The notes below the pieces were generated by a model that was not told the origin of the DNA, searched no databases, and saw nothing but the letters and a program-made list of their open reading frames with translations. A stretch of 64,000 bases of DNA from Hemileia vastatrix (Eukaryota; Basidiomycota; Pucciniomycetes; Pucciniales; Zaghouaniaceae). The stretch lies in assembly GCA_030280995.1 (NCBI GenBank), contig JASXTE010000009.1, positions 35,076,001 to 35,140,000 on the forward strand, read 5' to 3'. Shown piece after piece: positions 579 through 33,994 of this stretch (its first letter is position 1; each line of letters opens with the position of its first letter). The translations under genes were made by a program, and so were the position numbers.

Positions 579-1694
579 TATGGTAAGGTAAACTCTTACA
601 GTCGCCTTGCTGTAAGCAGAATCCGGAGGAGATATGTGGATTTAGCTGAAAACCCCGTCCTTCCAATAAAAATAACAAAATGGGTGTTCTAAATCACTAA
701 GCTAACCAATCTACTTAGATCTGATTGATAAAAAATAATGAAACTCTAAAATAATTAACGCTTATTGAGATTTAAAGAAAGTGGCTGTTGATAAAGAAAT
801 ACTGATAACAACAATTAAGGTGTACCAGTGAAAGATCTGTAAAGATTGACTTTTATGTTTTTATAATATTTTAAATTTATATGAGACAGCAATAATCAAG
901 TCCCAGCGACAAAGACCTTTCTAAAGATACCCTGTATGAAGTGTTATTTAAACTGTTGAATTGTATTTCTAAGATGTTATGTAAAAAATAATAATGTTAT
1001 AAGGGTATTACAAGTTATTTTAATTTGTTGAGTAATAAAAAATGAGTCTGTGGTGGTTAAAGATTAAGCTGTATGATGTGTCCCCCCTCTCAATTTCGAG
1101 TTTGAGAGTCGCTTAAGTATTCCTAGTCACGTGCCTAAGTTTTCCCCTCCAGAGCTCTTCCAGAGTCAATCTGGAGCCCGTACGGAGTCCGTACGGAGCC
1201 GGAACGGAGTCCGTCCGGACTTCCGGACTCAATTTAGAACCTTAAAACCATAATAAAAAATCTAGAAAAATTACACACAATAGAGCTACTTCCCCTTTAC
1301 CTACCAAACTAATTTTCGTAGTCTGCGCAGCTCTAATTACCCCGTGAAAATTCATCAAAGTTAGGTAATTTTTGAAAAACGTAAATATTTCTATAAAACT
1401 TTAAAATTCATTTAAAAATATAAGAAAAATAGTAAAAATTCTGGGAAAATTTCCCAAGGTTCTTGAGTGACTCGACTTGATACTTATAAATTTTTCAGAC
1501 CGTAAAAAATATGTTTTCTCCGCAAAATAAATTGTTTTCGTGTAGGCATTTGCTCGTGACCAATTTCTTCATATTTAAAACTCCAATAAATTAAATAAAA
1601 CCCTTTTATATAAAAAAATAATAACGCCAATCTTGCACGCCGTAATAACTCCATTTACATACTTAGGTGCCGTACTAAACTTTAGGCTACCACA
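579..1694 (-). repeat. 3' LTR of family A element (1116 bp)
   Basis: Almost identical to 13100-14215. It ends beside the polypurine tract at 1695-1704. It carries a GC-rich array of CGG triplets at 1172-1230 and a CACGTG box at 1128-1133; the rest is AT-rich. Because gene a1 starts 124 bp inside the element on the plus strand, this LTR could act as its promoter reading inward. Confidence 0.95.
1172..1230. promoter_or_regulatory. 11-bp-period CGG/CCG triplet array in the LTR
   Basis: The array reads as consecutive 11-bp units of the type GGAGTCCGTAC, with CGG and CCG triplets in direct, inverted and everted arrangement (for example TCCGTACGGA and TCCGGACTTCCGGA). It is a sharp GC island in AT-rich sequence and lies about 590 bp upstream of gene a1. 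Zn2Cys6 proteins of the Gal4 class bind paired CGG triplets. That these are targets of the element's own a1/a2 proteins is inference. The 11-bp spacing would put units on the same DNA face. Confidence 0.6.
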
Positions 1695-1704
1695 TCCTCC
1701 CTCC
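1695..1704 (-). other. Polypurine tract of family A element
   Basis: On the minus strand the ten bases before the 3' LTR are GGAGGGAGGA, the expected plus-strand primer. The same decamer precedes the LTRs at 15668, 28653, 30031 (minus strand) and 44089, so it is shared by families A and C. Confidence 0.8.
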
Positions 1705-1817
1705 AATCGAGAATGTCCCCATTCTTAAAACTTTGCATAAGTGGTTGAACACAATATTCATCTTTAACCTTCAACCACCATCTTCTTTAATCAACTATAA
1801 AATTCATCTTCATCAAT

Positions 1818-2510
1818 ATGTCTTCCAAAGAACTTGTCGCTCCATGTGAACTCTGCGCTCGATACCAGGTACCTTGTTTAATGTCCAACCCTAATCTTCC
1901 TGGCAGAACAGCTTGCGACTTATGCCGTGTGAAAAAAGTCAAATGCAACCGGCCAATAGTTCCTTCTAAAACAAACGTATATTTAGGACCAGCAGCTCTC
2001 CCTGATCCCTCAACTTCTAAAAAGCGATCCAAAATTCCTGTATTCTTAAAACGAATAAGATCAAAAACAGCTTCAAAAGTTCAATCTTCATCAGCGGATC
2101 CCGGCCTAATTTTGCCTTCACAAGATCCTAATCCTATAACGCCAGTACCCCCAACTAACTTTGCTGAGACTATGTTTCCTGGCTCTAAATGTAAGACCCT
2201 ATTTATCTTACTAAAAAAAACTTTTAATCAAAATTGACTAAACCTATAACTTAATAACATATTTGAACTTCTAGCTGTCGAAATAACCAACACTGATGAT
2301 GTTGGTAGAGTGAAGACGGACTATATCAATCATTACCCAAATTTTCATCGCTATCTTTTTCTTGACTTTACTAATGAGTTGAAACAAAAAATGCTGGCCT
2401 ATTTTCAAGAAACTCCAGCTAATAACCATGAAGACCTCATGAAAAGAAGAATTTTAATGCAAAGCTTTGATAATGATGTTGAACAATTTCAAAGAAATTA
2501 TCTTTTCTAA
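1818..2510 (+). CDS. Antisense Zn2Cys6-type protein a1 (two exons, intact)
   Basis: A putative DNA-binding protein encoded opposite to the retrotransposon's own genes. Exon 1 is 1818-2190, the intron 2191-2274 (GTAAGA...CTAG, 84 nt, phase 1) and exon 2 2275-2510, giving about 202 residues. Residues 10-43 fit CX2CX6CX12CX2CX6C, the Zn2Cys6 binuclear cluster spacing, with the basic run (RVKKVK) between the last two cysteines rather than in the first half. A Ser/Pro/Lys-rich linker follows, then a C-terminal helical block with AYFQETP and MKRRIL that recurs in the other antisense genes. A TATAAAA lies about 25 bp before the ATG. The only antisense gene of the window without an obvious lesion. 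DNA binding and a regulatory role are inferred from family resemblance. Confidence 0.75.
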
Positions 2511-3094
2511 CAGTATAACTTGATAAAATTTTGTTTTTGCTTGGTCTTCTTAAACTCTCAACATAAATGATGTTTTCTTCTTCTCTGGCTTGATATAACA
2601 TAAAATAAAATAATATAAATCTTGTGATGATTCCACTACTGAGAGCAAGGTTTGAATCCCTTCAGACTCCCATATACCAGTCTTCCTTCTTGTCACAGCA
2701 TTGAGAGAGTGGATCTTCCTATGAGCCGAATACTCCTGATTCCAACCTCATAGGGCCCCCCACTGAGCCGAATTCTATGATTCCAATCTCGCCATAAGGT
2801 CCTCCAAGCTTCACACCAAAAATGGCCTAACAATGAGGCACTAAAAAAAATCATTCCCTAAAATACAACTACCATCCTAACTTCTGATTCCTTCATCACA
2901 ATTTGCAAACTTTGCTATACAGCAAACCCATAAAATACTTTTGCCAGGCTTCCAACAATAATATTAACTTTAGACCATGTTAAAGCGCCACAAATTTCAC
3001 CTAATTAACCATTATGCTTTCCTTAGCATCATCACCACCTAAAGTTTTAACCTCCTAAAGCTATCAGCACCCAATTCCAGAAATAATTGAATAA
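2511..3094. other. Spacer between a1 and hairpin array
   Basis: No reading frame is supported. Two related 40-bp units around 2718-2810 each contain GAGCCGAAT and GATTCCAA. The first is bounded by a perfect 8-bp inverted repeat (CCTATGAG at 2718-2725 and CTCATAGG at 2747-2754), so it could fold. The block is conserved in A' (about 30960-31420) and inverted in A'' (about 43440-43880). Confidence 0.5.
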
Positions 3095-3563
3095 CCAGTT
3101 TAGAGTCTTAGTGGACAGTGATAAATTAAAAGATTGAATTGAGTTATCCAAACAAGATTGACATTCCAATTTAAAGTCTTGGTAGACCAAACATATAATC
3201 GATTGCCAGTTTATGGTCTTGGTGGACCAAAGATCGTTTAGGTGCATAAATAACTTGAAATATTCCTAAATAAGGCTTAGGCTTGACCAAAGATTGAATA
3301 AATTTGATAATCCAGTTTAATGTCATAGTGGACCAAACATTTGATCGACAAGTAATCCAGTATAAGGCCATAGTGGTCCAACGAATGTTGAATTATCCTG
3401 CAGATATTAATTTTCCAGTTTAAAGTCATAGTGGACTAAACAATGAATGAACTACCAGTTTAAAGTCATGGTGGACCAAACATTTAATCGATAAGAAATC
3501 CAGTTTAAGGTCATGGTGGACCCAACAGCTTGATAACAATCCAGTTTAAGGTCTTGGTGGACC
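3095..3563 (-). repeat. Array of nine hairpin motifs (noncoding)
   Basis: Nine irregularly spaced copies start near 3095, 3166, 3206, 3312, 3357, 3415, 3455, 3500 and 3541. In element sense (minus strand) each is a 4-bp stem such as GGTC/GACC or AGTC/GACT around a 6-nt loop such as CACCAA or CACTAT, followed by TTAAACTGG. Spacing of roughly 35-105 bp and divergent spacer sequence argue against a simple tandem repeat. Confidence 0.8.
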
Positions 3564-3669
3564 TAACAACTTCTCTATCCTTGAACCCAGATTCTGCCAC
3601 CAGCTTTCTTCATCCTAGTTTCAAGTTTTCTTCTTCAAAAAAAAAAAAAAAAAAATATCTCCTAACAAG

Positions 3670-4684
3670 ATGAAACCTTCTGACTTCATTGCTTCAGCTT
3701 ATCAATCTTGCAAATACTGTGCCTTCACCCATAGGGAATGTATCTTCTCTTTTAACTGGCAAAAGCACACTTATAACAGGGCCTGTTTATCCTGCTATGA
3801 GAAGAAAAGAAAATGTTCTGGCTTGAACTGTGGTTCTTTCCCCATCACTGCTACTAGCTTCGCCGCCTTCTGCAATCCTCCTCCTTCTTCTTCACCTTCT
3901 ACTCCACCCCCTATTCCATCAACCTCTAAAGATCCCATACCTTTTTCTCCATCAGCCTATTTAAACCTTTCTCCATCACCTAATCCTCTGGGTCCTTCTC
4001 TCCAATCTAGACTTGCTGCTACTCCCCCAAGAACTATTGCTGCTCCCAGGGCCATGCTTCAACCTTCTAACAATTCTTCTCCTTCTTCCAACATCTTGAA
4101 GCACAAAAGGTCCTATAATAGCCAGCAGTCTTCATCTTCTCTTGTATCATCCAAAAGGCCCAGAACATCTACTTCAAACACCAAATCCAACACCAGTCCT
4201 CCTCATCTATCAAAAATAAAAAATCCTTTTCTAAACATAAAAAAATCCCACTCCATTACCAAGTAAGCCATTTATCTATGATCATGATAGTGTTGACACA
4301 GGTTAGTTGTCTCTTTTTATTTTCTTAATCTTCAGGTTTTAATTTGCTGATATTTTAATTTGATAAGCGTCCACCGGTTCTCCAATTTCATATTCTGCTT
4401 ATAAACTACCAGAACCTAATCCAAGCTTTCCTAGAGTTCCCATTCACCTAGTGTCTGAAAAGCTTTTTGCCAATTTTAATAACCTTATCGCTTATTTCCA
4501 ACGATACCCGCCCTCTGATAGATCAGAATCTTGGATGAGAGAGCAACTGTTAAGAGACCTTTTCAAAATAGCCAACTGGCTTCAACACTATCGTGACCGT
4601 GAAATAAGATTCGAATCCCAGGAAATCGATCAAGGTCCTTCTAAATTTTCTAATTTCGATTCTTCAAAAGATAACAACCCTTGA
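3670..4684 (+). pseudogene. Antisense Zn2Cys6-type gene a2 (frameshifted)
   Basis: Second antisense gene of family A. Exon 1 starts at 3670 (ATG after a pyrimidine-rich leader and an A run). Residues 15-50 fit CX2CX6CX14CX2CX6C with RACLSCYEKKRKC in the second half. A long Ser/Pro-rich linker follows. By comparison with A', exon 1 should run to 4301, with a phase-1 intron 4302-4367 and exon 2 4368-4684 encoding a C-terminal block with LIAYFQRYP and REQLLRDLF, like a1. Here a 22-nt insertion near 4223-4245 shifts the frame and gives a stop at 4264-4266, so this copy likely makes only a 198-residue truncated protein that keeps the Zn cluster. Confidence 0.65.
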
Positions 4685-4759
4685 TGGTGCTCTTCCTGGT
4701 ATGTAGCTTTCTTGAATAATGTTTGAAAAATAAAATATAAACATCTAAACTACCTAAAA

Positions 4760-4844
4760 CTAAAATACCTTTTATTATTATTTTTTTTTTTTTTTTTTTT
4801 TTTATTTTTTTATTATTTTTTTTTTTTTTTTATTATTATTTTTT

Positions 4845-4893
<49 letters not shown>

Positions 4894-4943
4894 TTTTTTT
4901 ATTTTTTTATTTTTTTTTTTTTTATTTTAATTTTAATTTTTTT

Positions 4944-4991
<48 letters not shown>

Positions 4992-5125
4992 AAATAAAAG
5001 ATTTTAGAAAAGATAGTTTTGAAATAAAAGTTAAAATTTAATTTTTAAAGAAAGATAAACGAATGTGAAAAGAAAGATAAAAAAAAGTAAATAAAAAAAA
5101 ATTTTAAAATAAAATTTTAAAAGAT
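4760..5125. repeat. Poly-T / AT low-complexity tract
   Basis: About 230 bp of nearly pure T with scattered A (4771-4984), then A-rich sequence to about 5115. The equivalent tract is shorter in A' (33060-33310) and reversed as A-rich sequence in A'' (42290-42510). It lies just downstream of a2 exon 2 and may include an expanded poly(A)-derived or slippage tract. No gene is seen. Confidence 0.8.
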
Positions 5126-5166
5126 GCCCCCCGGCCATTTGATGAGCCGTACCCTCGACATCATAC

Positions 5167-5192
5167 CCACATCCAAGTGCAACTTGATGTGG
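5167..5192 (-). other. Conserved stem-loop H3 (3' region)
   Basis: In element sense: CCACATC, AAGT, loop TGC, ACTT, a bulged G, then GATGTGG, giving an 11-bp stem. The same fold is conserved at 42126-42151 (A'') and with changed inner stem pairs at 25409-25433 (C), which supports a structured RNA. Confidence 0.55.
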
Positions 5193-5261
5193 TTACACAA
5201 TTTTAAGAAATTGAAAAGAAAAGAAAAGAAATGAAAGTTTTTAGAAGATAATTTTTATAAT

Positions 5262-5323
5262 GATGATCACTGGGTGGGCTCCCTCCAATTTATAAAAATG
5301 ATTAGAGACCACCAGTGAGCATC
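5262..5323 (-). other. Conserved long hairpin H4
   Basis: The two ends are imperfect inverted repeats of about 19 bp (GATGCTCACTGGTGGTCTC against the GGGTGGGCTC side) separated by about 25 bp. It is conserved at 41994-42056 (A'') and 25176-25235 (C), always in the same order relative to H2 and H3. Confidence 0.5.
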
Positions 5324-5530
5324 ACCTTTACATTAATTCATAATATATATAAAAAAAAATCACAATCTAACATAAAAAATCAAAAACAAAATAAAAAAAA
5401 TCTTGAATCCGGCGTTGAGAGCGGTGTCTCTTGATTCGTTCCAGTTTATAGTCTTAGTGGACTTCCTAAAATTAAAAGACAAAGCCAGGATTCAACTAGT
5501 AACAGGGAAAATTTTGGAAACGAACATTAT

Positions 5531-5571
5531 GGGGTAATTGTGTATAGAGCAGCCAGCCCATCAATTACCCC
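5531..5571 (-). other. Conserved stem-loop H2 (GGGGTAAYTG hairpin)
   Basis: A perfect 10-bp stem, GGGGTAATTG with CAATTACCCC, closes a 21-nt loop containing GGGCTGGCTGCTCT. Copies lie at 14724, 24737, 24996, 27747, 33995 and 41736. The two copies at 24737 and 24996 have GGGGTAACTG paired with CAGTTACC, a compensatory change. Confidence 0.65.
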
Positions 5572-5788
5572 CACACTTGCCAATATTAAATTAAGAAGGT
5601 TCCCCTGTGAACACTTCTTCCAATAAATTTTAAAATTTTCCAACACTATCTTCACCCATATTTTAAGAATTTTATGTTTTCGAAAATTTCAAAGAAGGTC
5701 TTCTTGCATTTCGTTATATTTCATCACAGTTTCATCGCCCATATGCAGTGTAATGATAGTCAAGTATTTTTGATAAAAAATAAGAAGA

Positions 5789-6055
5789 TAGTTTATACTC
5801 GTTGCAGAGGAATAAATTTAATAAAAGTCATTAAAATTGTAGTTTATCCTCATTTCGGAGTTGATAAAATTTAAGAAATTTCATAGTTTATCCTCATTGC
5901 GGAGGAATCCATAAAGTTTCATTGATATCATAGTTTATCCTCATTGCGGAGGAATAAATTTAATAAAAGTCATTAAAATTTTAGTTTATCCTCATTTTGG
6001 AGTTCGTCCAAATAATTTCATAAATGTCATAGTTTATCCTCATTGCGGAGGAAGA
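5789..6055 (-). repeat. Hairpin motif array after and across the pol stop
   Basis: About six copies of the CCTC/GAGG version (loop CGCAAT, tail ATAAACTAT), at roughly 47-bp spacing. The one at 6029-6053 encodes the last residues RNEDKL and the stop of pol; the rest are downstream. A single AGTC-type copy lies at 5442-5465. Confidence 0.75.
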
Positions 6056-9000
6056 CTTCGGCACTCCTGGTGCCTCTAGGATAGAACCGTTTCACTTGAT
6101 CGGCCGCTACCCTCTTCTTTAATACTACTCCATCCAACTCTTCTAGCACATATGAACCGCCGGAAACTTGCTCCTTGATTTTATACGGTCCATTCCACCT
6201 ATCTGCAAACATCTTTCCCCACTGACTTTACAAAATCCTATTATACACCAGGACCATATCTCCTGGGTTCAAAGGTTTCCTTAATCGATGTGCCAACCGC
6301 TCATCCCAATATCTAACTGATTGATTTCGGATCTTCATCATCCGCGAATATGCCTTTTCTAAATATTCTTCTTTCTTTTCTAGCTGCATCATTCTTGCAC
6401 ACAATAAATCTTCAGTAGTTTTGACCGTGTCCCAGTCAACTCCAAGATATGATTCAGCTTCTAAATCAACCGGTAAAACTGCTTTCTGTCCAAAAACAAT
6501 TTCATAAGGTGAAAATCCGGTCGTCCTTTTGGCAGTGATTCGATCAGCAAATAAAACTAAAGGTAAATAGTGCCTCCACTTTTTGGCACTTGTCCCACAC
6601 ATTTTAACTAAAGCATCCTTAATAACTTGATGCCCTCTTTCAACCATTCCTTCAGCTTCAGGATAATATGGGGTTGCTACCCTAACCTTTGATCCAACTT
6701 TCAATACGGCCTCTTTAAACTCTGTCCCAAATTCAGGACCTCCATCTACCGTCACCAACTTCATCACCCCATACCTATATACCCAATTATTCAAAAAAAA
6801 TTCTGCCACATTTTTGGCAGTTAAATTAATAAGAGGCGCTGCCTCTACCCAACCAGATAAATCATCTCTGGCCACAATTAAATATTTATACCGTCCCTCT
6901 TTTATATGAACGGCATCTAAACTAACTCTTCCAAAGAGCGTATATTCACCGGTCGCGCGTCCAGGTTCTTTTGGCCTTAAATAACTTCGTCTTTGACATT
7001 CTTCGCATGACTGAACCCACTGTTTAACAGCCATCTTCATGCCAGGCCACCAAAATCGATCAGAAATTCTTCTAAACGTTTCTCCAACGCCTCTATGCCC
7101 GAGATCTTCATGCAGTGATTTCAAAACTAATTCTTGCCCCTTCTGTTGAGTTATAACTACTTGAGGATTTGGATACCTCCTCCTCATTAAACGTCGACCA
7201 GATAGGTAAAACGTAGATGACTTCCTCTTGATAGCCACCCATTCATCGTCTACACAATCTTCTGGCCTCTCTAAAGTCAACAAATATTTGACTAACAAAA
7301 AATAAAAACCAGTCTGACCCCAGACTTCATCTTGAAAATCGATTAATATAACATCAATAGGGACTTCTCTATCACCAATATCACCTGCACATGAATGAGC
7401 CAATAATAGTTGACCCCTAAATAAATTTTTAATCGAGCTATGTCGCCGTTTTTCTTCTGAACCTTTGGATCCTTTGTAAACCGTATTTGAAAATACCTCT
7501 TTCTCTTTATCCACCTTTTTATTTAAATTCTCTAATTCTCCAACATATACACCATTCCTTAATTTACTACTATCCCACACTACCAATCCATCTTCCTCTA
7601 CATACACCACATCTTCTTCTACCTCCTCTCTGCCGAATTTATCTACACCTTTATTAACATAAAAACTATTTTCCAGTTTATCCTCTTTGTGGAGGTCATC
7701 AACACCATAATCTGAACATAATAGTCCTGCCAGTTTAACCTCATGGGGGAGGTATGGAAAGTCTTCAGCTCCTTTAGTGCTGGCTTTGATAATAGGTATA
7801 TCTTCATCGAACTCTTCTGAGTCTGAATCTTCTTCAGTGGGTGGTCTTCTTGATAAACCATCTGGCATAGTAAAAGTCTTGCCAGGCTTATGAACTAAAT
7901 CAAATGAAAAATGTTGAATAAAAGCTACCCATCTCGTCATGGGTGCGTTCGGTAAACTTGGGGAATTAATCATCTGGATTAACGATTTCGCATCCACTTG
8001 CAACTCAAAATGTTGCCCCCACAAAATATGCTGAAGTTTCTTCAGTATTTTCGCCACACCACATAATTCCAATTTTGGTTGAGAATATCTTGATTCGACC
8101 TCAGTAAATACTACAGATTCATACCTAACTGGCCTGATGTAACCAGCTTTATCCATCTGAGACAAAACCGCCCCAGCTGCAACCTGACTTGAATCAACTG
8201 CTAAATAAATTCTGCCAGCTCCTTTTCCATAATCCAACTTGTGCAGGACTAAATCCTTCCCTACAACCTCCTTCAACTTCACAAACGCCTTCTCACACTC
8301 TTCATCCCACTCCCAGTCTGAATCCTTTCTCGTCAACCGTCTCAATGGAGCTGCCAATGAAGAAAAGTCCTTAATAAACATTCTAACATATACGCAAACG
8401 CCTAAAAACCCTCTAACTTCGGTTGTATTCTTGGGTCTTGGCCAGGACTGAATTTTGTTAACTTTCTTCCTGGACATAATCCTACCCTCTCTACATACCA
8501 CATGGCCTAATATTTCTAAGGCTGGCACACAACATGAAAATTTTGAACCTGAAATAGTTAAACCAGCCTCTTCAATTCGAAACAAGATTCTTTCTAAAGT
8601 AATTGCAAACTCCCAAATGAATTTGCGTATCCCGGGATTCTCTTCCAACACCTGGTTATCATAGTCGGTTGTTGGTCCCTTAATTCCTCCATCATCTATA
8701 AAGATTCCAGCATATTGTGGAATTTCATCTTGAAGGATCCAAGCCATCTGAGCTTGATAAACTGCAACCAAATTTGTTGCTCCTTGAGGTAATCTTGTTA
8801 ACTGTAAACGTCCAAGTGGCGTATCGAATGTAGTGAGAGGCCTTGAGTCCGGATGTAACTCTCTCTCATCATATCCAACCATAATATCTCCCAAACCATA
8901 ACACACTCTCCCTGCAAACGCTTCAACAAACTCCTCAGCACTAGGCGGTATCCCAGCATCCTTTATTGTAACCCTATTTAATTCCCTAAGATCATGAACA

Positions 9001-10332
9001 ACTCTAAGCTTGCCATTCGGTTTCTTGATACAAAATACAGGACTAGAATAACTTGACGTTGATTGCTCATACAGTCCAGTGCGTATCCGTTCTTTGACAA
9101 CTTCAATATAGGCTTCTTTCAATGCAGCCGGAATAGGAATTGGTTTCTGCTGCCAGGGTTCATGACATACCACAGGAATCTTGTAAGGCTCCCCATAGGA
9201 ATGCTTCAACACACCCCTCTCCTCTTCTACAAAAGCAATGGCCTTCTCTCGCTTGACCATCACATCCAACAACAACTTCTTCTCTTCTCCAGACAACCAA
9301 CCATCAGGTCCAAAATTAACAACACCCAGTCTCTCAAAAGTGATTCTTGACGTCTCAGAAAATTCAGGCGGATTCTTTACCAAGGGACTTTCATAAGGAT
9401 CTCTTGATAACCTTGGTCTTCTCAAAGGTGGATTTAATTCAGCAGGTAGCGGTTCATTAATAGGTCGAACTTTATTTGCTACCTTCTTATATTTGGCTGC
9501 GTCCACATCTAAATTAACTTGAGGTAAAACATTTTCTTTTGTATCACCATTAAAACTTTCATCAAATGAATCTTCTTCATCGCCAGAATCGGAATAAGAA
9601 AAATTAGAAAAATATTTTATTTCATTTTTAAATTTTACCCTTTTCTCCTTTCCCTCGTCTAATTTATAAACAGATTTTCCAACACCTTTGCTTCCCTTAT
9701 CCAACAGTAAATCACCCGTAAAGAAAGTCGGCAGTTTAACCTCTTGCTGGAGGCCCGGAATTGAATTTTCACAAAAATTATTTTTTTGAGTTTTAATTAT
9801 ACTAAGATTTTTAATCGAATTTTGATGTGATATTTGCAGTTTACCCTTTTGCTGGAGGTCCAAAATAGAAGGAGATAATTGCAGTTTAACCTCTTGCTGG
9901 AGGTCCCGAATAACATTTTCACATAAGTTATTTTTTTGTGTTTTACTTATACTGAGATTTTTAATCGAGTTTTGATGTAATTTTTGCAGTTTACCCTCTT
10001 GCTGGAGGTCCATAATAGAAGGAGATACTTGCAGTTTAACCTCTTGCTGGAGGTCCATAAAACATACCCTTCCAATTTTTATCCAACCTAATTTGGCCCA
10101 TTTTTCCTTTTTCACCGTTTTTAAAATTAATAGAAAAACCGGGTAAATCCAATAAACATATAGAAAAGTCCAAAACGTATTTGCACTCCAAAGTAATATT
10201 AACAGAAAATAATTGAGAATCCACTTGAATTATCTCCAAGTGAGCTGACCTATTGCAATCCGGGATCTCATCCTGAGGAGAGATTACAACATTAGAGCGA
10301 TCAGCCCTTGCTACCCCAAAAAATGAGGGCAT
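6027..10332 (-). pseudogene. pol: Pol polyprotein (RT, RNase H, integrase), family A
   Basis: Encodes the replication and integration enzymes of the element. The frame opens in the -1 frame across the gag end (first ATG at 10332). An N-terminal linker contains repeated DLQQExKLQ peptides made by hairpin motifs. RT follows (FIDDGG active site near 8690-8705), then RNase H (LAVDSSQ near 8190), an integrase HHCC zinc finger (HEDLGH ... CEECQ, 7000-7115) and an integrase core with D, D and E (LDAVHI, VDGGPEF, EGMVERGHQ). There is no chromodomain. Two lesions show against A' and A'': one extra base near 10058, which shifts the frame between the first 93 residues and the rest, and a TAA at 6228-6230 that cuts off the last 60 residues. 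The 1295-codon frame 6228-10115 is otherwise open. Confidence 0.88.
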
Positions 10333-12923
10333 TCATCCCTTTCTAACAAACATAATTCACCAGAAGCCGTCCATTTTATATGCCGCTTCTTGGTGCAAAC
10401 ACAACACTGGCACAGAGTAGTAATCCCTGGCCGTGTTTCCCAACCTTCATCTCCAGGAGGTGCTAACCGCATATGTAACCTCCGCATATCTTCACCAGTG
10501 ATCTCCAAACTAATCCCCATGCCAGCTTGATACCCTATCCTGGCCTCAAAATCCATCAAAAAAGGACCCCCAAGAACAGTTTTGACTGCTCCTCTAGCCA
10601 CATAAAAGTGAACCTTACCAACAGATCCACCAATGCCTAACCTGACATGCTCAGCTGTACCCATCAGCTCTGTTGCATGCCCTCCAATACCTCTGAGGTT
10701 TCCCCCAGTTCCACTTTTAATTGGCAAGCCTATACTTGTTGCTTGCTCCAATGAAATTAAATTAATTTGAGACCCTGAATCGACCAAGGCCTTTACTTCT
10801 TTACCATTAAGAGTTACCACCAGGTAACCCAGGGGAGCAGAAAAATGTGTATCTACATCTTCCCCAAACTTTTCAGCATTTTCACAAATATATTCCACCT
10901 CTCCAGTGGAAACCCGACGCCTCGTCAAATGCTTCTTTTGCTTTTCAGCAAGCGCCGGACTAATCGTAAATAACTCCCCCAAAGATAAGGGAATCTGAAG
11001 TTGATTCACCCTATTCAAAACTGCGTCCATCGCATTAGCTTGACCAGAAACTACTGGCCGCTCATACTGGACCTTTGATTTAACAACCTTGGCCCTGGGT
11101 ACCTCTTGAGGTCCAACCAAGCCATCTTCACCCCCCATTATAACATCTTCACTTTCTATAACCCTAACTCCGTCACCAGCTTCTTGCACTAATCCTGATC
11201 CATCGCTAGTCCTTCTTACACCCTCCATTGGGATGGGACCGCTAAAACTTGGTCTGGGTAGAGACGCCAACGGTACGTCCTCCTCAGAATCCGAATCATC
11301 CTCTGGCATAGGCTCACCAATTAAATCAAACTTGCCATAACTAGGGGGCCCCATATCAGCAATCCCCTTCTGCATTTTATATAATTCGTCCTTAGAGTAA
11401 GGGTTCAATTTGTTGGCGGCAGTTTGAGCACTAGAATTCTTGTCCTTAGAGTAAGGGTTCACTTTGTTATTGGCCTTGCCAGGATTAGCCCTCAATTGGC
11501 TCTGAATGCTACTTTTCGCCTTAGTAGCGGCTGCTCTTCTAGCAGCATTAACATCGTATTCGCCAGCCATACAGCTACCCTCCACCTGGGCAACCGTCGC
11601 CAGCTCTAAACCACCATAAGAAGTAGAAAATGTGGATTTACTGACCTCTTTCTCTTTACCTTTGTCAGCTTTTCCACCATTACCGTTACCATTTTTGCCA
11701 CCCTTGGCATTAACATCTTCATCCGTCACCTCTTCAAATCTGGCTCTTCTTTCAGCCGTTAAACTTCTTCTGACCAAATCAGAAGGAGACTGTCCATCAC
11801 TGGGCTTGATGAACAAACCATCAGGAAATTTATAAACGTTACCATCAAATAAAACTCGCCCAGCATCCATATCCTTATCTAGAGCAAAACAAACTGTTGC
11901 TCTGTGCCCCCTCCTATTACAATAGGAGCACACCTTTGGCTCATCGTAGCCACCTCTATATCCATTACTACCACCATTCCCACCATTTCTCCCATTGCCT
12001 GGGAAGCGGTTACCATTGTTATTGCCATTATAATTTCGACGTTCATAACCTCTAGTCTGATAAGAAGTCGACGTCGACGAAGAAGTGATTGGGGCCTTAT
12101 TGGCCTTCTGGGTTTCTTGAACAAATATTTTTAATTGTTTAGTTAAATCGGCCAGGTGATTGACCATCTTATTATCCACATTACCCTCAACTTTAGCAGC
12201 AGGTAATCCCATTTGAGCCTTCTTGGCCTCCTGGGCTTTGACCATAATATCGTTATTTTCGGCCAAAACTTCGCTAACCTTGCTGACATATTGAGTGCAT
12301 GACTCTTGATATTTGTCCAACGCCAATAACTTAAGATGGGCCTGAATGTTCTCTTTGATAACCTCCAGAGCCGGCAGTTTCTGCTCACCATTAGGCAGTT
12401 CCTTCATCAAATCTTTTCTTGAAAGATCCTTCAAGACGTCCATACGAATATCCCTGCTGCATGCTGACCAAAACAAATCTTTTGCTTGGTTCTCATGCAC
12501 TAACTTGTCCACCAGTATGAGATATTCCACCACTTCATCAAACTGAACACAGAGCTTTTTAAAGTCAGCCATAGAAGAAACACCACCTTTTGCTTGCCAG
12601 TCTCCAACAATTTTATTGAGGTCCATCATAGTAAACCTAACACCCCATCTATCAACCATAGCTTTAGAAAGCTTAACCCAATCCTTGTCCTTGAATGCCT
12701 GCATAGCAATAACCTCTTTTTCCACCTCCCTATTGGCAATAAAAAATCTAACTTGCTTCACCATATCCACATGAGAAGCACCATCAACAGCAGCAGCAGC
12801 TTCATACCTGCTAATGAACCATTTAACCTCCTCCCCATCAAACTTTGGGCCATCCCAAGAAACAATTCTAACTGAGGGAGTAAGAGGGTTAGAAGATCCA
12901 GAAGCAACAGCAGAAGAAGACAT
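10311..12923 (-). CDS. gag: Gag-protease polyprotein, family A (intact)
   Basis: A structural polyprotein of about 870 residues. Start ATG 12923 is chosen because it follows the primer site and the motif MSSSA matches the family C start; an upstream open frame reaching the LTR is ignored. Capsid-like region about residues 15-230 (WDGPKF, VKWFISRYE, MVDRWGVRFT); Gly/Asn/Arg-rich segment then a CX2CX4HX4C zinc knuckle (CSYCNRRGHRATVC, about 329-343); acidic and Ser-rich spacer; aspartic protease near residue 711 with LVDSGSQINLIS (DSG active site) and ending in an LGG block. The last codons overlap pol by 22 nt at a slippery run. Confidence 0.9.
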   Translation of the reverse strand: MSSSAVASGSSNPLTPSVRIVSWDGPKFDGEEVKWFISRYEAAAAVDGASHVDMVKQVRFFIANREVEKEVIAMQAFKDKDWVKLSKAMVDRWGVRFTMMDLNKIVGDWQAKGGVSSMADFKKLCVQFDEVVEYLILVDKLVHENQAKDLFWSACSRDIRMDVLKDLSRKDLMKELPNGEQKLPALEVIKENIQAHLKLLALDKYQESCTQYVSKVSEVLAENNDIMVKAQEAKKAQMGLPAAKVEGNVDNKMVNHLADLTKQLKIFVQETQKANKAPITSSSTSTSYQTRGYERRNYNGNNNGNRFPGNGRNGGNGGSNGYRGGYDEPKVCSYCNRRGHRATVCFALDKDMDAGRVLFDGNVYKFPDGLFIKPSDGQSPSDLVRRSLTAERRARFEEVTDEDVNAKGGKNGNGNGGKADKGKEKEVSKSTFSTSYGGLELATVAQVEGSCMAGEYDVNAARRAAATKAKSSIQSQLRANPGKANNKVNPYSKDKNSSAQTAANKLNPYSKDELYKMQKGIADMGPPSYGKFDLIGEPMPEDDSDSEEDVPLASLPRPSFSGPIPMEGVRRTSDGSGLVQEAGDGVRVIESEDVIMGGEDGLVGPQEVPRAKVVKSKVQYERPVVSGQANAMDAVLNRVNQLQIPLSLGELFTISPALAEKQKKHLTRRRVSTGEVEYICENAEKFGEDVDTHFSAPLGYLVVTLNGKEVKALVDSGSQINLISLEQATSIGLPIKSGTGGNLRGIGGHATELMGTAEHVRLGIGGSVGKVHFYVARGAVKTVLGGPFLMDFEARIGYQAGMGISLEITGEDMRRLHMRLAPPGDEGWETRPGITTLCQCCVCTKKRHIKWTASGELCLLERDECPHFLG
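10317..10323 (-). promoter_or_regulatory. Programmed -1 frameshift site T_TTT_TTG
   Basis: In gag frame the codons are CAT TTT TTG GGG TAG. Slipping back one base gives TTT GGG GTA GCA, which enters the open pol frame. The equivalent site in copies C and E is T_TTT_TTA, the heptamer used by HIV-1. A downstream structure is not obvious by eye. Confidence 0.65.
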
Positions 12924-13079
12924 CCCAATAAGTAATGAAAAGCGTGAACAATTGATAAAATAACAAGCCTCTTGCAGGCCAATAACAAAGATCCAATTAG
13001 AGTTCCAGAAAATAAGCCTCTTGCAGGCTAATAACGTTCTTGATCCAAGTAAGTCTTTAAAGAAAGCTAGAGAAATCGA

Positions 13080-13097
13080 ACCCCACGTTGGGCGCCA
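13080..13097 (-). other. Primer binding site, tRNA-Lys type
   Basis: Two bases after the 5' LTR the sense strand reads TGGCGCCCAACGTGGGG, matching the known tRNA-Lys(1,2) primer site of several retroviruses at 17 positions. The same site follows the family C LTR at 17964. Confidence 0.8.
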
Positions 13098-13099
13098 AC

Positions 13100-14215
13100 T
13101 ATGGTAAGGTAAACTCTTACAGTCGCCTTGCTGTAAGCAGAATCCGGAGGAGATATGTGGATTTAGCTGAAAACCCCGTCCTTCCAATAAAAATAACAAA
13201 ATGGGTGTTCTAAATCACTAAGCTAACCAATCTACTTAGATCTGATTGATAAAAAATAATGAAACTCTAAAATAATTAACGCTTATTGAGATTTAAAGAA
13301 AGTGGCTGTTGATAAAGAAATACTGATAACAACAATTAAGGTGTACCAGTGAAAGATCTGTAAAGATTGACTTTTATGTTTTTATAATATTTTAAATTTA
13401 TATGAGACAGCAATAATCAAGTCCCAGCGACAAAGACCTTTCTAAAGATACCCTGTATGAAGTGTTATTTAAACTGTTGAATTGTATTTCTAAGATGTTA
13501 TGTAAAAAATAATAATGTTATAAGGGTATTACAAGTTATTTTAATTTGTTGAGTAATAAAAAATGAGTCTGTGGTGGTTAAAGATTAAGCTGTATGATGT
13601 GTCCCCCCTCTCAATTTCGAGTTTGAGAGTCGCTTAAGTATTCCTAGTCACGTGCCTAAGTTTTCCCCTCCAGAGCTCTTCCAGAGTCAATCCGGAGCCC
13701 GTACGGAGTCCGTACGGAGCCGGAACGGAGTCCGTCCGGACTTCCGGACTCAATTTAGAACCTTAAAACCATAATAAAAAATCTAGAAAAATTACACATA
13801 ATAGAGCTACTTCCCCTTTACCTACCAAACTAATTTTCGTAGTCTGCGCAGCTCTAATTACCCCGTGAAAATTCATCAAAGTTTAGTAATTTTTGAAAAA
13901 CGTAAATATTTCTATAAAACTTTAAAATTCATTTGAAAATATAAGAAAAATAGTAAAAATTCTGGGAAAATTTCCCAAGGTTCTTGAGTGACTCGACTTG
14001 ATACTTATAAATTTTTCAGACCATAAAAAATAAGTTTTCTCCGCAAAATAAATTGTTTTCGTGTAGGCATTTGCTCGTGACCAATTTCTTCATATTTAAA
14101 ACTCCAATAAATTAAATAAAACCCTTTTATATAAAAAAATAATAACGCCAATCTTGCATGCCGTAATAACTCCATTTACGTACTTAGGTGCCGTACTAAA
14201 CTTTAGGCTACCACA
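13100..14215 (-). repeat. 5' LTR of family A element (1116 bp)
   Basis: Partner of 579-1694. In sense it runs from 14215 (TGTGGTAGCC) to 13100 (TTACCATA). The CGG triplet array lies at 13691-13751, about 465 bp from the LTR start, where an upstream activating element might be expected. Confidence 0.95.
13691..13751. promoter_or_regulatory. CGG triplet array, 5' LTR copy
   Basis: Same 11-bp unit array as 1172-1230, with five units. The only difference noticed lies at its start (TCCGGAG here against TCTGGAG), which adds one CGG. Confidence 0.6.
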
Positions 14216-14453: not shown

Positions 14454-14918
14454 AGTCCATCAAGACTTTAAATTTAAATCTGGTTTCTGTTAGTCCTCCA
14501 AGACTTTAAACTGGCTGGTTTCAAGATTTTATCAAGACTAGTCCGTCAAGAATTTAAACTGAACACTGTGTTAGTCCCCCTTGACTTTAAACTGAGGATT
14601 GTTGTTGGTTCAGTCCCCCAAGACTATTAACTGAGGAATGGGTTTTGTTGTTGGAGTTGGTTTTGAAAGATTGGTGGAGGGTATCCACAGGGCGAGCCTC
14701 CAAATTTAGCAAAGGCAAGTTTGGGGGTAATTGATGGGCTGGAAGCTCTATTTAAAATTACCCCAGAATGTTAGTTTTTTCTCTGTGTCTTAATGTGGTT
14801 GATATCTGGTTCTGGGTTTATGATTTAGGTTTTTGAGTCCCCCAAGACTTTAAACTGAGGGTTTTTGAGTCCCCCAAGACTATAAAATGAGGATAGTCCC
14901 CCATGACTTAAAACTGAG
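14454..14918 (+). repeat. Array of eight hairpin motifs plus one H2 stem-loop (copy B)
   Basis: AGTC/GACT-type copies start near 14454, 14491, 14538, 14574, 14611, 14836, 14869 and 14894, most followed by TTTAAACTGG or TTTAAACTGAGG. H2 (14724-14764) sits in the middle with nine of ten pairs. All lie in the element's sense strand. Confidence 0.75.
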
Positions 14919-25800: not shown

Positions 25801-26039
25801 TTATTATGTTTCTAATCTTTTTTCAGGAGCTTATTGTCTGGATAATGAAGCTTCTGGAGGATGGTCTGGATTATGATGTCATTTTTGTTTTTTGTTGGTG
25901 TTGTGGGAAGCACTGTGTTCTTTGAAGTGCATCCTGCTGGAGAGATTATATGGATTGTAATGGGCAGGAATTGGATTAGAAGGAAGTTCAGAGGAGGAAG
26001 AAGAAGAGGCAGGAATGGAGTGCTGGAAGGTGTGCTTAA

Positions 26040-27362
26040 TGATCATAGACATCTTCCAGTGGTCGTACAACAGGCGCTTTCTCAGGTATTTTTCAAAGTC
26101 ATTCAAAGGCTTTTAGCATGTTTGAATACATGCTGCTGAGGTGTTGTTTCATGTCTCCATAATCCAGGGTCAAAGAAGTTTCTAGAGGTTGGCCAACTCC
26201 AATAGTAGATTCAAGAGGAGGGGTGCCAACTAGACAAGAAGAATTGGATAAGTAATTATTTTTGTTGAAGAAATTGGATGATATAAAGTGGTACTTACAG
26301 ATTGAAAGCTCATCAAATTTGTAAGCAGCCGTAATTTGGACATCTGAAGATTTTGGATTGGTCATAGTAAGTGGATCAATCAGGGAAAGATATGGATTCT
26401 ATTTGTCATCCTCTGAAAGGTTTTAAGAAGATGAACTAGGAGACTGATTCTCTTGTGGCCTAGTTGGAGCATCAGGTCTGCTGTTGCTGTTGTTAATATT
26501 TCTGCTGGATTTAGTTGGATGAGGTCCTGGTGATGGAGTACCAGGGTTGTTATAAGATGGAGCAGGAGAGGGTGATTTTGAAGCAGATTGATCTCTTCTG
26601 GATGGAGATTTTAGGGAATGGAACTGTCAGAAGAATAGTTGGCTGAAAGAGGAGAGGTTTAGTTTCGTTGTCTTAACTAGCGACAAAGTTGTTGCTTTGG
26701 TGCAGTTTTGGGTGCTTTGATTTCTTCCTGGGGTCCTCTGGTAAGTCTCTTAGAAATTTGGGAAAATTTGGAGTTTTTGGACCTTGGAAGGGTTGGCTAC
26801 CTTGATCAGGGAGCAGTGGGTGGTAATTTCGTGGAGTTGTTTTCGTTGATTCGATGAATTTGGCTGTTTTCTGGTTATTTTTGGAGGTTTTGAGCCTGAT
26901 TTTCAATGTCTAGTGAGGCGGGCGGGCCGCCTGGACGCGGTCTAGAAGCCTAGGAGCTGATTTTGAAGCTTTTGGAGCTAATTTAGAAGAGATAAAATCT
27001 GTTTCTTGGGAAGCTAAGGCTGGTCTTTTGGGAAGATTTCTGGAAGCTGAGTTCCTGGATCTACTGGATGGTGCTGAGGATAAAGAGGAAGAGGATGGAC
27101 CAAGCTCTAGGGATCTTGTAGGGGATCTGGAGAGGTATTTGTGAGAAGGTGAAGGAGGATGAATAGGGTAGTTGTCATCTCTTTCACATTTCTTCTTTTT
27201 GGAGTAGCAAGAATCACAAGCCCTGATGTAGAATTTGGCTTCAGCAGTTTGAAGAGTGAATGTGCAAAGTCTGCACATGTGGATGCACTTTTTGCAGGCA
27301 TAGTCCTTGGGAGAAGTGAAGAAAGGAAGAGTAGAGAGGTCAAAATCAGGGGATCCAGCCAT
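26040..27362 (-). pseudogene. Antisense Zn2Cys6-type gene c1 (copy C)
   Basis: ATG at 27362; the first 45 residues contain CX2CX6CX15CX2CX6C with RACDSCYSKKKKC, matching a2's RACLSCYEKKRKC. A long Ser/Pro/Lys-rich linker follows, broken by an in-frame TAG at about 26910, another stop near 26673 and later frame changes. A Ser/Pro-rich coding stretch is still readable around 26430-26600. A clear GTAAGT...CTAG phase-1 intron lies at 26230-26298, after which a helical block (LTLDYGDMKQHL, then YLRKRLLYDHW after a shift near 26100) replaces the YFQ block of the other genes; that last assignment is weaker. Confidence 0.6.
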
Positions 27363-27514
27363 GATCTGTGGTGAGAAAAGATGATGGAAAGAGATAAGAA
27401 GGAGAATTTTGTCAGTGATGGGTAGATGATAAAGTGAAGGTGGAAGTTCAGCAGTTTAGCTGTAGGTGTGTTCTGTATGAAATTGTCTGAATCTATTTTA
27501 TGCAAAACTCTATC

Positions 27515-27905
27515 AGTCCTCCAAGACTTTTATCTGGCTGGTTTCAAGACTTTATCAAGATTAGTCCGTCAAGACTTTAAACTGAACACTGTGTTAGTCC
27601 CCCAAGACTTTTAACTGAGGATTTTTTGATGGTATAGTACCCCAAGACTATAAACTGAGGAATGTGTTTTTGTTGTTGGAATACTTTGAAAGATTGGCAG
27701 ATGGTATCCACAGGGGGAGCCTCTGAAATCAGCAAAGGCAAGTTTGGGGGTAATTGATGGGCTGGAAGCTCTATTCACAATTACCCCAGAATGTTAGTTT
27801 TTTCTCTGTGTCTTAATGTGGTTGATCTCTGGTTCTGGGTTTATGATTTATGTTTTTGAGTCCCCCAAGACTTTAAACTGAGGGTTTTTGAGTCCCTCAA
27901 GACTA
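27515..27905 (+). repeat. Hairpin motifs and H2 between c1 and c2 (copy C)
   Basis: About six motif copies (27515, 27562, 27596, 27637, 27860 and a partial one near 27892) and a perfect 10-bp H2 stem-loop at 27747-27787. It is the counterpart of 14454-14918 in copy B, from which it differs by a short deletion around 27905. Confidence 0.75.
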
Positions 27906-27965: not shown

Positions 27966-28604
27966 TCAAGTACTAGTGGAATTACAGAGGGAATCAAGAG
28001 ATGAAATGAATAGTTCAGAATTAGCCTTGAGCTGGTGAATGAGAAGTCTTCTGTTCTCAATGTCCTGTGGTCTAGCAGGAGTGGATTGGAAGTAGTGAAG
28101 CAGAAGTTGTTTCTGTTGAGATGTGTGTTGTTGGAACTTGGCCTTAATTGCGGGCAAGTGGTTTGCGGTTGGTGGTTCAATGGATACTACATTGTTATCA
28201 TCACTGTCAGAAAACTAAGGAACTGAGAAGTCATCAGCTTTATAGAGCGGAAAGAAGGAATAGAATTTTTTACCATCAGATAGACCAGGGATGGTGGAAC
28301 TTGTTGTTTTATGGGTTGTGGCACTCTTATGGGAAGGGTGAAGCTTTTTGATTAATCTGGGTATCAGGATGGATGGCCTAGATCTTTTGGTGCTGGTAGA
28401 AGATGGACCAGGTTGAGGTGGAGGTGAAGCTGTTGCAGAAGATAATGGACCAGGTCTGTAGCAGGTCTTCTTTCTAGATTGGCAGACATTGCAGGACGTT
28501 CTGTATGGATGGACAGGAGGTGTGATGGTGCAGATTAGATTATTGTCAATGCAGTATTGGCAAGTACCCATTTCAGAGGCAGATTTGGGAAGAAGGTTGA
28601 ACAT
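27966..28604 (-). pseudogene. Antisense Zn2Cys6-type gene c2 (copy C), nearly intact
   Basis: Start ATG 28604 is preferred to one upstream at 28724, which lies inside the LTR. Exon 1 (28274-28604) encodes CX2CX6CX12CX2CX6C (CQYC ... CNVCQSRKKTC), the same spacing as a1, and a Ser/Thr/Pro-rich basic linker. Phase-1 intron 28223-28273 (51 nt, with CTGAT branch-like site and CAG end). Exon 2 to 27966 encodes LLLHYFQSTP and IENRRLLIHQL. One TAG at about 28215-28217 interrupts exon 2 unless an acceptor a few bases downstream is used. Position next to the polypurine tract matches a1. Confidence 0.68.
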
Positions 28605-30153: not shown

Positions 30154-30845
30154 ATGTCTTCCAAAGAACTTGTTGCTCCATGTGAACTCTGCGCTTGATA
30201 CCAGGTACCTTGTTTAATGTCCAACCCTAATCTTCCTGGCAGGACAGCTTGCGACTTATGCCGTGTGAAAAAAGTCAAATGTAACCGGCCATTATTTCCT
30301 TCTAAAACAAACGTATATTTAGGACCAGCAGCTCTCCCTGATGCCTCAACTTCTAAAAAGCAATCAAAAATTCCTGTCTTCTTAAAACGAATAAGATCAA
30401 AAGCAGCTTCAAAAGTTCAATCTTCATCAGCAGATCCCGGCCTTATTTTGCCTTCACAAGATCCTAATCCTATAACGCCAGTGCCCCCAACCAACTTTGC
30501 TGAGACTATTTTTCCTGGCTCTAAATGTAAGACCCTATTATCTTACTAAAAAAAACTTTTAATCAAAATTGACTAAACCTATGACTTAATAACATATTTG
30601 AACTTCTAGCTGTCGAAATAACCAACACTGATGATGTTGGTAGAGTGAAGACGGACTATATCAATCATTATCCAAATTTTCATTGCTATCTTTTTCTTGA
30701 CTTTACTAATGAGTTGAAACGAAAAATTCTGGCCTATTTTCAAGAAACCCCAGCTAATAACCATGAAGACCTCATGAAAAGAAGAATTTTAATGCAAAGC
30801 TTTGATAATGATGTTGAACAATTTCAAAGAAATTATCTTTTCTAA
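30154..30845 (+). pseudogene. Antisense gene a1 (A' copy)
   Basis: Aligns with 1818-2510, with the same intron (30527-30609). Codon 15, within the first half of the Zn cluster, is TGA instead of CGA, so the intact product cannot be made. Downstream ATG 30217 could only give a protein with the second half of the cluster. The remaining frame is open, so the stop appears recent. Confidence 0.75.
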
Positions 30846-31422
30846 CAGTATAACTTGATAAAATTTTGTTTTTGCTTGGTCTTCTTTAACTTTCAACATA
30901 AATTTTGTTTTCTTTCTTCTCTGGCTTAACATAAAATAATAAATAATAAATCTTGTGATGATTCCACTACTGAGAGCAAGGTTTGAATCCCTTCAGACTC
31001 CCAGATACCAGTCTTCCTTCTTGTCACAGCATTAAGAGAGTGGATCTTCCTATGAGCCGAATACTCCTGATTCCAACCTCATAGGGCCCCCCACTGAGCC
31101 GAATTCTATGATTCCAATCTCGCCATAAGGTCCTCCAAGCTTCACACCAAAAATGACCTAACAATGAGGCACTAAAAAATCATTCCCAAAAATCCACTAC
31201 CATCCTAACTTCTGATTCCTTCATCACAATTTTCAAACTTTGCTATACAGAAAACTCATAGAATACTTTTTCCAGGCTTCCAATAATAATATTAACTTTA
31301 GACCATGTTAAAGCGCCACAAATTTCACCTAATTAACCATTATGCTTTCCTTAGCATCATCACCACCTAAAATTTTAACCTCCTAAAGCTTATCAGCACC
31401 CAATTCCAGAAATGATTGAATA
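30846..31422. other. Spacer between a1 and hairpin array (A')
   Basis: Counterpart of 2511-3094, including the paired 40-bp GAGCCGAAT units. No gene seen. Confidence 0.5.
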
Positions 31423-31986: not shown

Positions 31987-32978
31987 ATGAAACCTTCTGA
32001 CTTCATTGCTTCAGCTGATCAATCTTGCAAATATTGTGCTTTCACCCATAGGGAATGTATCTTCACTTTCAACTGGCAAAAGCACACTTATAACAGGGCC
32101 TGTTTATCCTGTTATGAGAAGAAAAGAAAATGTTCTCGCTTGAACTGTGGTTCTTTCCCCATTACTGCTACTAGCTTTGCCTCCTTCTGAAAACCTCCTC
32201 CTTCTTCTTCACCTTCTACTCCACCCCCTATTCCATCAACCTCTAAGGATCCTATCCCTTTTTCTCCATCAGCCTATTTAAATCTTTCTCCATCACCTAA
32301 TCCTCTGGGTCCTTCTCTCCAATCTAGACTTGCTGCTACTCCCCCAAGAACTCTTGCTTCTCCCAGGGCCATGCTTCAACCTTCTAACAAATCTTCTCCT
32401 ACTTCCAACATCTTGAAGCACAAAAGGTCCTATAATAGCCAGCAAACTTCATCTTCTCTTGTTTCTTCCAAAAGGCCCAGAACATCTACTTCAAACACCA
32501 AATCCAACACCAGTCCTCCTCATCTATCAAAAATAAAAAATCCCATTCCATTACCAAGTAAGCCGTTTATCTATGATCATGATAGTGTTGACACAGGTTA
32601 GTTGTCTCTTTTTATTTCTTAATCTTCAGGTTTTAATTTGCTGATATTTTAATTTGATAAGCGTCCACCGGTTCTCCAATTTCATATTCAGCTTATGAAC
32701 TACCAGAACCTAATCCAAGCTTCCCTAGAGTTCCAATTCACCTAGTGTTTGAAAAGCATTTAGCTAATTTTAATAACCTTATCGCTTATTTCCAACAATA
32801 CCCGCCCTCTGATAGATCAGAATCTTGGATGAGAGAGCAACTGTTAAGAGATCTTTTCAAAATAGCCAACTGGCTTCAACACTATTGTGACCGCAAAATA
32901 AGATTCGAATCCCAGGAAATCGATCAAGGTCCTTCTAAATTTTCTAATTTTGATTCTTCAAAAGATAACAACCCTTGA
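31987..32978 (+). pseudogene. Antisense gene a2 (A' copy)
   Basis: Exon 1 31987-32596, phase-1 intron 32597-32661, exon 2 32662-32978. The Zn cluster CX2CX6CX14CX2CX6C is intact, but TGA at 32188 (TGC in the 3670 copy) cuts the linker. This copy lacks the 22-nt insertion of the other a2 and shows the correct frame through VDTA into the C-terminal LIAYFQQYP block. Confidence 0.72.
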
Positions 32979-33059
32979 TGGTGTTCTTCCTGGTATGTAG
33001 CTTTCTTGAATAATGTTTGAAAAATAAAATATAAACATCTAAACTTCCTAAAACTAAAA

Positions 33060-33986: not shown

Positions 33987-33994
33987 AACATTAT

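What the first reader, a model, noticed from the sequence alone, without database searches (positions are those of the whole stretch)
1818..4684. Retrotransposon carrying two antisense Zn2Cys6-type genes
Between pol and the 3' LTR, on the opposite strand, family A carries genes a1 and a2, and family C carries c2 and c1 in the same positions (27966-28604 and 26040-27362). All four show CX2CX6CX12-15CX2CX6C; the third spacing is 12 in a1 and c2, 14 in a2 and 15 in c1, so the pairs look orthologous. Retention of the same two-gene module in two diverged families implies selection, at least in the past. Zn2Cys6 proteins are fungal transcription regulators; finding them as accessory antisense genes of LTR elements is, to my knowledge, not a standard architecture. 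The basic residues lie in the second half of the cluster, unlike Gal4.
Basis: partly seen in the sequence, partly recalled or inferred. Interest (0 to 1): 0.93.

Follow-up and report, generated by a model that had tools for sequence, protein, structure and literature searches.

The report
Retrotransposon with antisense zinc-cluster gene pair
Two related families of jumping genes in a rust fungus each carry, backwards behind their enzyme gene, a pair of genes for Gal4-like zinc-cluster proteins whose two halves are swapped, which looks like a self-regulating switch for the jumping gene.

Summary
Element A (579-14215, minus strand) carries a1 and a2, and element C carries c2 and c1, all antisense between pol and the 3' LTR. 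The six-cysteine pattern occurs five times in six frames of the window, only in these genes, and in none of 30 shuffled windows. a1/c2 and a2/c1 are orthologous pairs, and the two genes are old paralogs: zinc cluster, Ser/Pro linker, short C-terminal part, with a phase-1 intron proposed in each. The cluster looks like a Gal4 cluster with its halves swapped. Between copies A and A', a1+a2 show dN/dS 0.23, like gag (0.25); the decayed C copies show no significant constraint. No homolog was found, although pol matches rust fungi. The A LTRs hold a CGG/CCG array with an 11-bp period, the densest in the window; C LTRs do not. Best reading: LTR-driven antisense regulators that act on their own LTR; transcription, splicing and binding are inferred. 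Antisense accessory genes at this place are known (Retand, Grande, Boty), so this is a new variant of a known kind. The home genome could not be searched.

The parts
579..14215 (-). element A, Ty3/gypsy type (gag 10311-13199, pol 6228-10115), LTRs 579-1694 and 13100-14215
   Evidence: LTR pair 99.19% over 1116 nt; Pfam protease, RT, RNase H, integrase domains
1163..1226 (.). CGG/CCG array, 11-bp period, in the 3' LTR of A
13684..13747 (.). the same array in the 5' LTR of A
1818..2190 (+). a1 exon 1: swapped Zn2Cys6 cluster, Ser/Pro linker, basic patch
   Evidence: dN/dS 0.21 A vs A'
2191..2274 (+). proposed phase-1 intron of a1
   Evidence: GT...AG, frame joins; no RNA data
2275..2510 (+). a1 exon 2: C-terminal part, predicted helical hairpin
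3670..4266 (+). a2 exon 1: swapped Zn2Cys6 cluster and Ser/Pro linker; junction with exon 2 unresolved in this copy
   Evidence: dN/dS 0.23 over 3670-4215
4368..4684 (+). a2 exon 2: C-terminal part
   Evidence: dN/dS 0.25, P 0.08
28274..28604 (-). c2 exon 1, ortholog of a1
27966..28186 (-). c2 exon 2
26910..27362 (-). c1 exon 1, ortholog of a2 (decayed gene)
26040..26229 (-). c1 C-terminal exon after a proposed intron 26298-26230; frame broken in this copy
30154..30846 (+). a1 of copy A', with a premature stop
31987..32980 (+). a2 of copy A', with a premature stop
3208..3563 (+). hairpin repeats between a1 and a2 (part of a wider set, see Noticed in passing)

Best explanation
a1/c2 and a2/c1 are accessory regulatory genes of a rust-fungus Ty3/gypsy lineage. 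They are transcribed antisense to gag-pol, the first gene of each pair from inside the 3' LTR, whose edge lies 124 and 49 bases from the start codons. Each encodes a DNA-binding Zn2Cys6 cluster with swapped halves, a flexible Ser/Pro linker with basic patches, and a C-terminal part (predicted helical hairpin in a1) that could pair protein molecules. The proteins most likely bind CGG triplets, for element A the 11-bp-spaced array in its own LTR, and so tune sense and antisense transcription. Shown here: anatomy, paralogy and orthology, coding selection in the A family, sequence signs of the swap, the CGG array. Inferred: transcription, splicing, zinc and DNA binding, direction of regulation.
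For: Pattern only in these genes, 0 in 30 shuffles; orthologous pairs; proposed phase-1 introns; dN/dS of a1+a2 0.23, 0 of 5000 null draws as low, gag 0.25, pol part 0.35; half-clusters match Zn_clus and Gal4/Lac9 in swapped order; residues at Gal4 Lys17 and Lys18 are K-K in a1, a2, c1 and R-K in c2 (alignment; role of these lysines from PMC3384613 and PMC5559640, passages); 10-14 CGG/CCG per 70 nt in each of five A-type LTRs, at most 5 elsewhere in the window.
Against: No expression data. The CGG array is in A-type LTRs only; the C LTR reaches 5 per 70 nt, and B, without such genes, 1. C copies: dN/dS 0.59 and 0.81, not different from neutral. Synonymous sites of a1 and a2 (about 10%) are more diverged than the spacer (1071 of 1107 identical) and the a1 intron (82 of 83), so rates vary. 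One of three opposite-strand frames of a2 exon 1 also gives a low ratio, 0.32. Copy A'' lacks both genes. The zinc model has low confidence, its 21 Foldseek matches are not significant, and the second matched stretch in each printed structure alignment is not significant on its own.
Confidence: 0.42

Rival explanations
1. The proteins are DNA-binding accessory factors whose main targets are host promoters or chromatin (for example against silencing, or to guide integration), not the element's LTR.
For: Zn2Cys6 type; no CGG array in the C LTR although C carries the genes.
Against: The densest CGG array of the window lies in the LTRs of the family that carries a1 and a2.
Confidence: 0.2
2. The proteins bind nucleic acid of the element's own RNA, for example the repeated hairpins, and help packaging or RNA fate.
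For: 49 hairpins in the A and C elements and none in element B; both families carry hairpins and genes.
Against: The matched domain type is a double-stranded-DNA binder, and nothing ties the proteins to the hairpins.
Confidence: 0.13
3. The antisense RNA itself is what matters (double-stranded RNA or interference with sense transcription) and the coding content is secondary.
For: Antisense RNAs of LTR elements can act without protein (PMC7264820, parts 1-2; PMC10186651, abstract).
Against: Constraint in the coding frame of a1 and a2 at the level of gag; a1-c2 proteins are 36% identical with no blastn match between these two gene regions at 1e-10.
Confidence: 0.1
4. The genes are passengers: host zinc-cluster genes once captured, now decaying without use.
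For: Copy A'' lacks the genes; C copies are decayed.
Against: The same ordered pair in two diverged families, and constraint like gag in A. No homolog outside the element was found.
Confidence: 0.1

Closest known systems
Antisense accessory ORFs of plant Ty3/gypsy elements (Retand with TRP28, Grande gene23, RIRE2)
   Same: Antisense, between pol and 3' LTR, long 3' internal region with repeats, suspected nuclear or DNA-binding regulators (PMC7264820, PMC11963269)
   Different: TRP28 (PF04195) is not among the Pfam hits of the four proteins scanned here; here a pair of zinc-cluster paralogs, each with a proposed intron
brtn of Boty-like retrotransposons (Botrytis cinerea)
   Same: Antisense additional gene in a fungal gypsy element (PMC7264820; PMC8365987 passages; the original paper seen only as a title in a reference list)
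HBZ of HTLV-1
   Same: Antisense regulatory protein with its promoter in the 3' LTR (PMC10186651, abstract); offered as a likeness in working
   Different: Basic-zipper protein (recalled); one gene, in an animal retrovirus
Fungal Zn2Cys6 transcription factors (Gal4, Lac9, Leu3)
   Same: Six-cysteine spacing, two basic residues at the Gal4 Lys17/Lys18 places, linker and C-terminal helical part
   Different: Order of the two half-clusters swapped; about 183-202 residues for c2 and a1; encoded by a retrotransposon

Membership tests
Fungal Zn2Cys6 (Gal4 class) | Six cysteines, CX2CX6CX5-16CX2CX6-8C | tested here: met
   a1, a2, c1, c2; the upper bound of the middle spacing is mine, chosen to include these genes
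Fungal Zn2Cys6 (Gal4 class) | Basic half-cluster first, second half after it | tested here: not met
   Swapped order in Pfam half matches (4 of 8 halves matched, all in swapped position) and in the 3 printed structure alignments
Fungal Zn2Cys6 (Gal4 class) | Two-metal cluster fold | tested here: inconclusive
Fungal Zn2Cys6 (Gal4 class) | Binding to CGG triplets | not testable with these tools
   Only residues and the LTR array agree
Antisense accessory ORF between pol and 3' LTR (aORF-3R) | Antisense to gag-pol, between pol and 3' LTR | tested here: met
Antisense accessory ORF between pol and 3' LTR (aORF-3R) | Present in most copies, conserved like other element genes | tested here: inconclusive
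   Gene traces in 2 of 3 A-type copies and in both C-type copies that reach this region; dN/dS like gag in A; genome-wide count not possible
Retand lineage | TRP28 domain in the antisense ORF | tested here: not met
   Pfam scan of a1, a2 exon 1, c1 exon 1 and a c2 reading shows only Zn_clus hits or none
Ty3/gypsy LTR retrotransposon | Protease, RT, RNase H, integrase in that order, with LTRs | tested here: met
   Pfam hits in gag and pol ORFs, LTR pair; the rve match (29.4 bits) is under its cut-off of 32.6
HBZ-like antisense retroviral gene | Antisense promoter in the 3' LTR | not testable with these tools
   Only the short distances of 124 and 49 bases to the LTR edge

The most novel reading that the evidence does not exclude
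A retrotransposon lineage that carries its own Gal4-like regulatory circuit: two paralogous antisense genes with permuted zinc clusters that recognise an 11-bp-spaced CGG array in the element's own LTR, giving self-activation or self-limitation, together with a family-specific set of hairpins.
Probability: 0.38. Interest if true: 0.85.

Novelty: new variant of a known kind. Interest (0 to 1): 0.64.

Why it matters
Antisense accessory genes of LTR retrotransposons are an open puzzle: PMC11963269 calls the function of the plant versions unknown and suspects DNA binding. Here the protein type suggests a target motif, and a matching array sits in the element's own LTR, so the old idea becomes testable. 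A zinc cluster with swapped halves would also show that the Gal4 module tolerates permutation. An element-encoded transcription factor could also touch host genes.

Tried and rejected
Homolog searches: profile of a1 and c2 (435 candidates, none with E <= 0.01; its c2 row held an early splice guess) and of the four exon-1 proteins (4055 candidates, none with E <= 1). The database holds rust proteins, but transposon genes are often left unannotated, so absence is weak evidence. DNA relatives through pol: viral contigs and genome contigs gave none; genome contigs holds bacteria and archaea. The home genome could not be searched: ten identical requests did not complete.

The exon-2 frames in the first selection test were wrong and were redone; the exon-2 values are discarded. 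The first c2 intron placement (typed) was replaced by that. A CGG array in the C LTR was looked for and not found. The C-terminal model gave 66 Foldseek matches with E <= 10, none with E <= 0.001, of mixed kinds. Rfam gave no match at gathering score. Literature searches on zinc clusters with retrotransposons, antisense or permutation. In the rows and abstract starts that I saw, none describes zinc-cluster genes in LTR elements; searches list only 15 of 327, 20 of 424 and 12 of 55 papers. The library lacks most subscription papers, and spellings with brackets cannot be searched. I recall that basidiomycete databases may hold proteins with a similar cysteine order; no call tested this.

Full report
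What is there. The window is a nest of LTR elements. Element A (579-14215, minus strand) has LTRs 99.19% identical over 1116 nt (1107 of 1118 with slightly wider ends); those of A' are 1059 of 1104, so A is the younger. A sits inside the c1 gene of an older C-family copy, C' (1-578 and 14216 onward), with a 4-bp target duplication ATGT read from the printed flanks. A second A copy, A' (28928-48698), lies in element C with duplication ACGG, and holds a third, inverted copy, A'', that appears cut at its 5' end. Element B (49832-59561) served as a control. Over the 501 pol residues searched, the 17 best of 386 database proteins are 71-76% identical; the named ones among them are two Puccinia species and one bacterial metagenome bin. 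So the host is a rust fungus or close kin; the species is not known to me.

The genes. a1 (1818-2190, 2275-2510) and a2 (3670-4266, 4368-4684) run on the plus strand, opposite to gag-pol, between pol and the 3' LTR. c2 (28604-28274, 28186-27966) and c1 (27362 downwards) do the same in C. The six-cysteine pattern occurs five times in six frames of the window: a1, a2, the a2 of A', c2, c1; 30 shuffled windows gave none. Scores of the zinc parts: a1-c2 78, a2-c1 82, c2-c1 61, c2-a2 57, a1-c1 49, a1-a2 41; none of 500 shuffles reached any of them. C-terminal parts: a1-c2 77 and a1-a2 49, reached by no shuffle; c2-a2 27, reached by 148 of 500, not significant. Each gene can be read with a phase-1 intron before the C-terminal part; for a2 this holds in copy A', not in A, and for c1 only locally. 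So the pair probably arose by a duplication older than the split of A and C.

State of the copies. a1 of A is open in both exons. In A the exon-1 frame of a2 ends before the donor used in the model; A' differs by a 22-nt indel there, so the junction in A is unresolved. In A', a1 and a2 each have a premature stop. In A'' the body of a1 is missing between two occurrences of an 8-base repeat, with its last codons left, and no coding part of a2 is detectable. c1 is broken in C, and in C' it is interrupted by element A.

Selection. A versus A', Nei-Gojobori counts: a1 dS 0.088, dN 0.020; a2 dS 0.109, dN 0.026 (its exon 1 tested over 3670-4215 only); pooled ratio 0.23 over 485 codons, 0 of 5000 null draws as low; gag 0.25; integrase part of pol 0.35; another pol part, A versus A'', 0.38. 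Codons with a gap or stop in the second copy were dropped. By exon, the signal is clear in exon 1 (a1 P 0.0035, a2 P 0.003) and not in exon 2 (P 0.51 and 0.08). The other two forward frames show no constraint; of three opposite-strand frames one is low in a2 exon 1 (0.32, P 0.0085) and less so in a1 (0.39, P 0.11). C versus C': c2 0.59, c1 exon-1 part 0.81, neither different from neutral. The spacer between a1 and a2 (1071 of 1107 identical) and the a1 intron (82 of 83) are less diverged than the synonymous sites, so rates vary along the element.

The zinc cluster looks permuted. Of eight half-fragments, four match Zn_clus: the second halves of a1, a2 and c1 at profile positions 1-15 or 1-16, the first half of c2 at 17-35 (E 6e-5 to 0.04; only a1 passes the curated cut-off). 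The other four gave no hit. Against solved structures, 11 of 14 rows are zinc-cluster proteins (E 0.003 to 3.9). In the three printed alignments the basic half of the query matches residues 9-26 of Lac9 or Gal4 and the first half matches residues 25-45, each stretch weak on its own. The Leu3 rows align across the centre in direct order instead. Gal4 Lys17 and Lys18 contact the target DNA (PMC3384613, passage; Lys18 and the CGG guanines, PMC5559640, passage). They fall on K39 and K40 of a1; a2 and c1 also have K-K and c2 has R-K. AlphaFold gave two short helices at the CX2C sites at mean pLDDT 64.7; 19 of 21 Foldseek matches are zinc-cluster chains, none significant. The C-terminal part of a1 is predicted as two long helices, with blocks 31-70 at pLDDT 93-96, without a significant match.

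Cis elements. Each of five A-type LTRs holds 10-14 CGG/CCG triplets in 70 nt; elsewhere in the window the maximum is 5, and shuffled A-type LTRs reach at most 7. CGG recurs at 1183, 1194, 1205 and 1216. B LTRs reach 1. The C LTR reaches 5, which ties for the densest place outside the A LTRs and equals its shuffled maximum, so it is no evidence. The start codons of a1 and c2 lie 124 and 49 bases from the LTR edge, so the promoter of the first gene should lie largely in the 3' LTR if the gene is transcribed.

How it would work. Antisense transcription from the 3' LTR yields a1 and, through the same or its own promoter, a2. The proteins enter the nucleus (basic patches seen by eye), pair through the C-terminal helices, and bind CGG triplets in the LTR, tuning the sense promoter that lies in the same sequence in the 5' LTR. 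Every step after the anatomy is inference.

Comparison. Antisense accessory ORFs at this place are known in plants and in Boty and are suspected regulators (PMC7264820, parts 1-2 of 3; PMC11963269, abstract, passages, Discussion; PMC8365987, passages). HBZ of HTLV-1 is the model for how such a gene can work (PMC10186651, abstract). Other extra ORFs are common in rotifer LTR elements (PMC5408684, abstract). No paper in my listings describes zinc-cluster genes in such elements (calls named in Tried and rejected). Hence a new variant of a known kind.

Noticed in passing
3208-10033 (A); 14512-14856 (C'); 21014-27879 (C); 31746-36417 (A'); 37413-43310 (A''): 49 of 122 AGTTTA sites are followed by a perfect 4-bp hairpin with a six-base loop (stems CCTC, AGTC or GGTC; chance about 0.5 to 1), all antisense to pol of the element they lie in (14, 3, 5, 11 and 16 sites), none in element B. 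Three stem types with both sides changed suggest RNA structure.
   Followed up: partly
9731-10061 and 36055-36445: Some of these hairpins lie in tandem repeats in the upstream part of the pol ORF and read there as repeated peptides such as DLQQEVKLQ. A search for such a peptide pattern in the 120 listed pol relatives found none.
   Followed up: partly
42515-44039: Copy A'' has lost the body of a1 between two occurrences of an 8-base repeat and shows no a2 coding part.
   Followed up: partly
15668-17959: C' and C seem to share one LTR in which a 608-nt unit occurs three times in tandem.
   Followed up: no
49832-59561: Element B: LTRs 99.9% identical, one ORF of 1973 codons (51517-57438, minus strand) that looks by eye like a gypsy polyprotein with a chromodomain-like end; no family scan was made.
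   Followed up: no
database proteins P0014 and P0036: Pol relatives 72-73% identical are labelled as a Sphingobacteriaceae metagenome genome; probably rust DNA in a bacterial bin.
   Followed up: no
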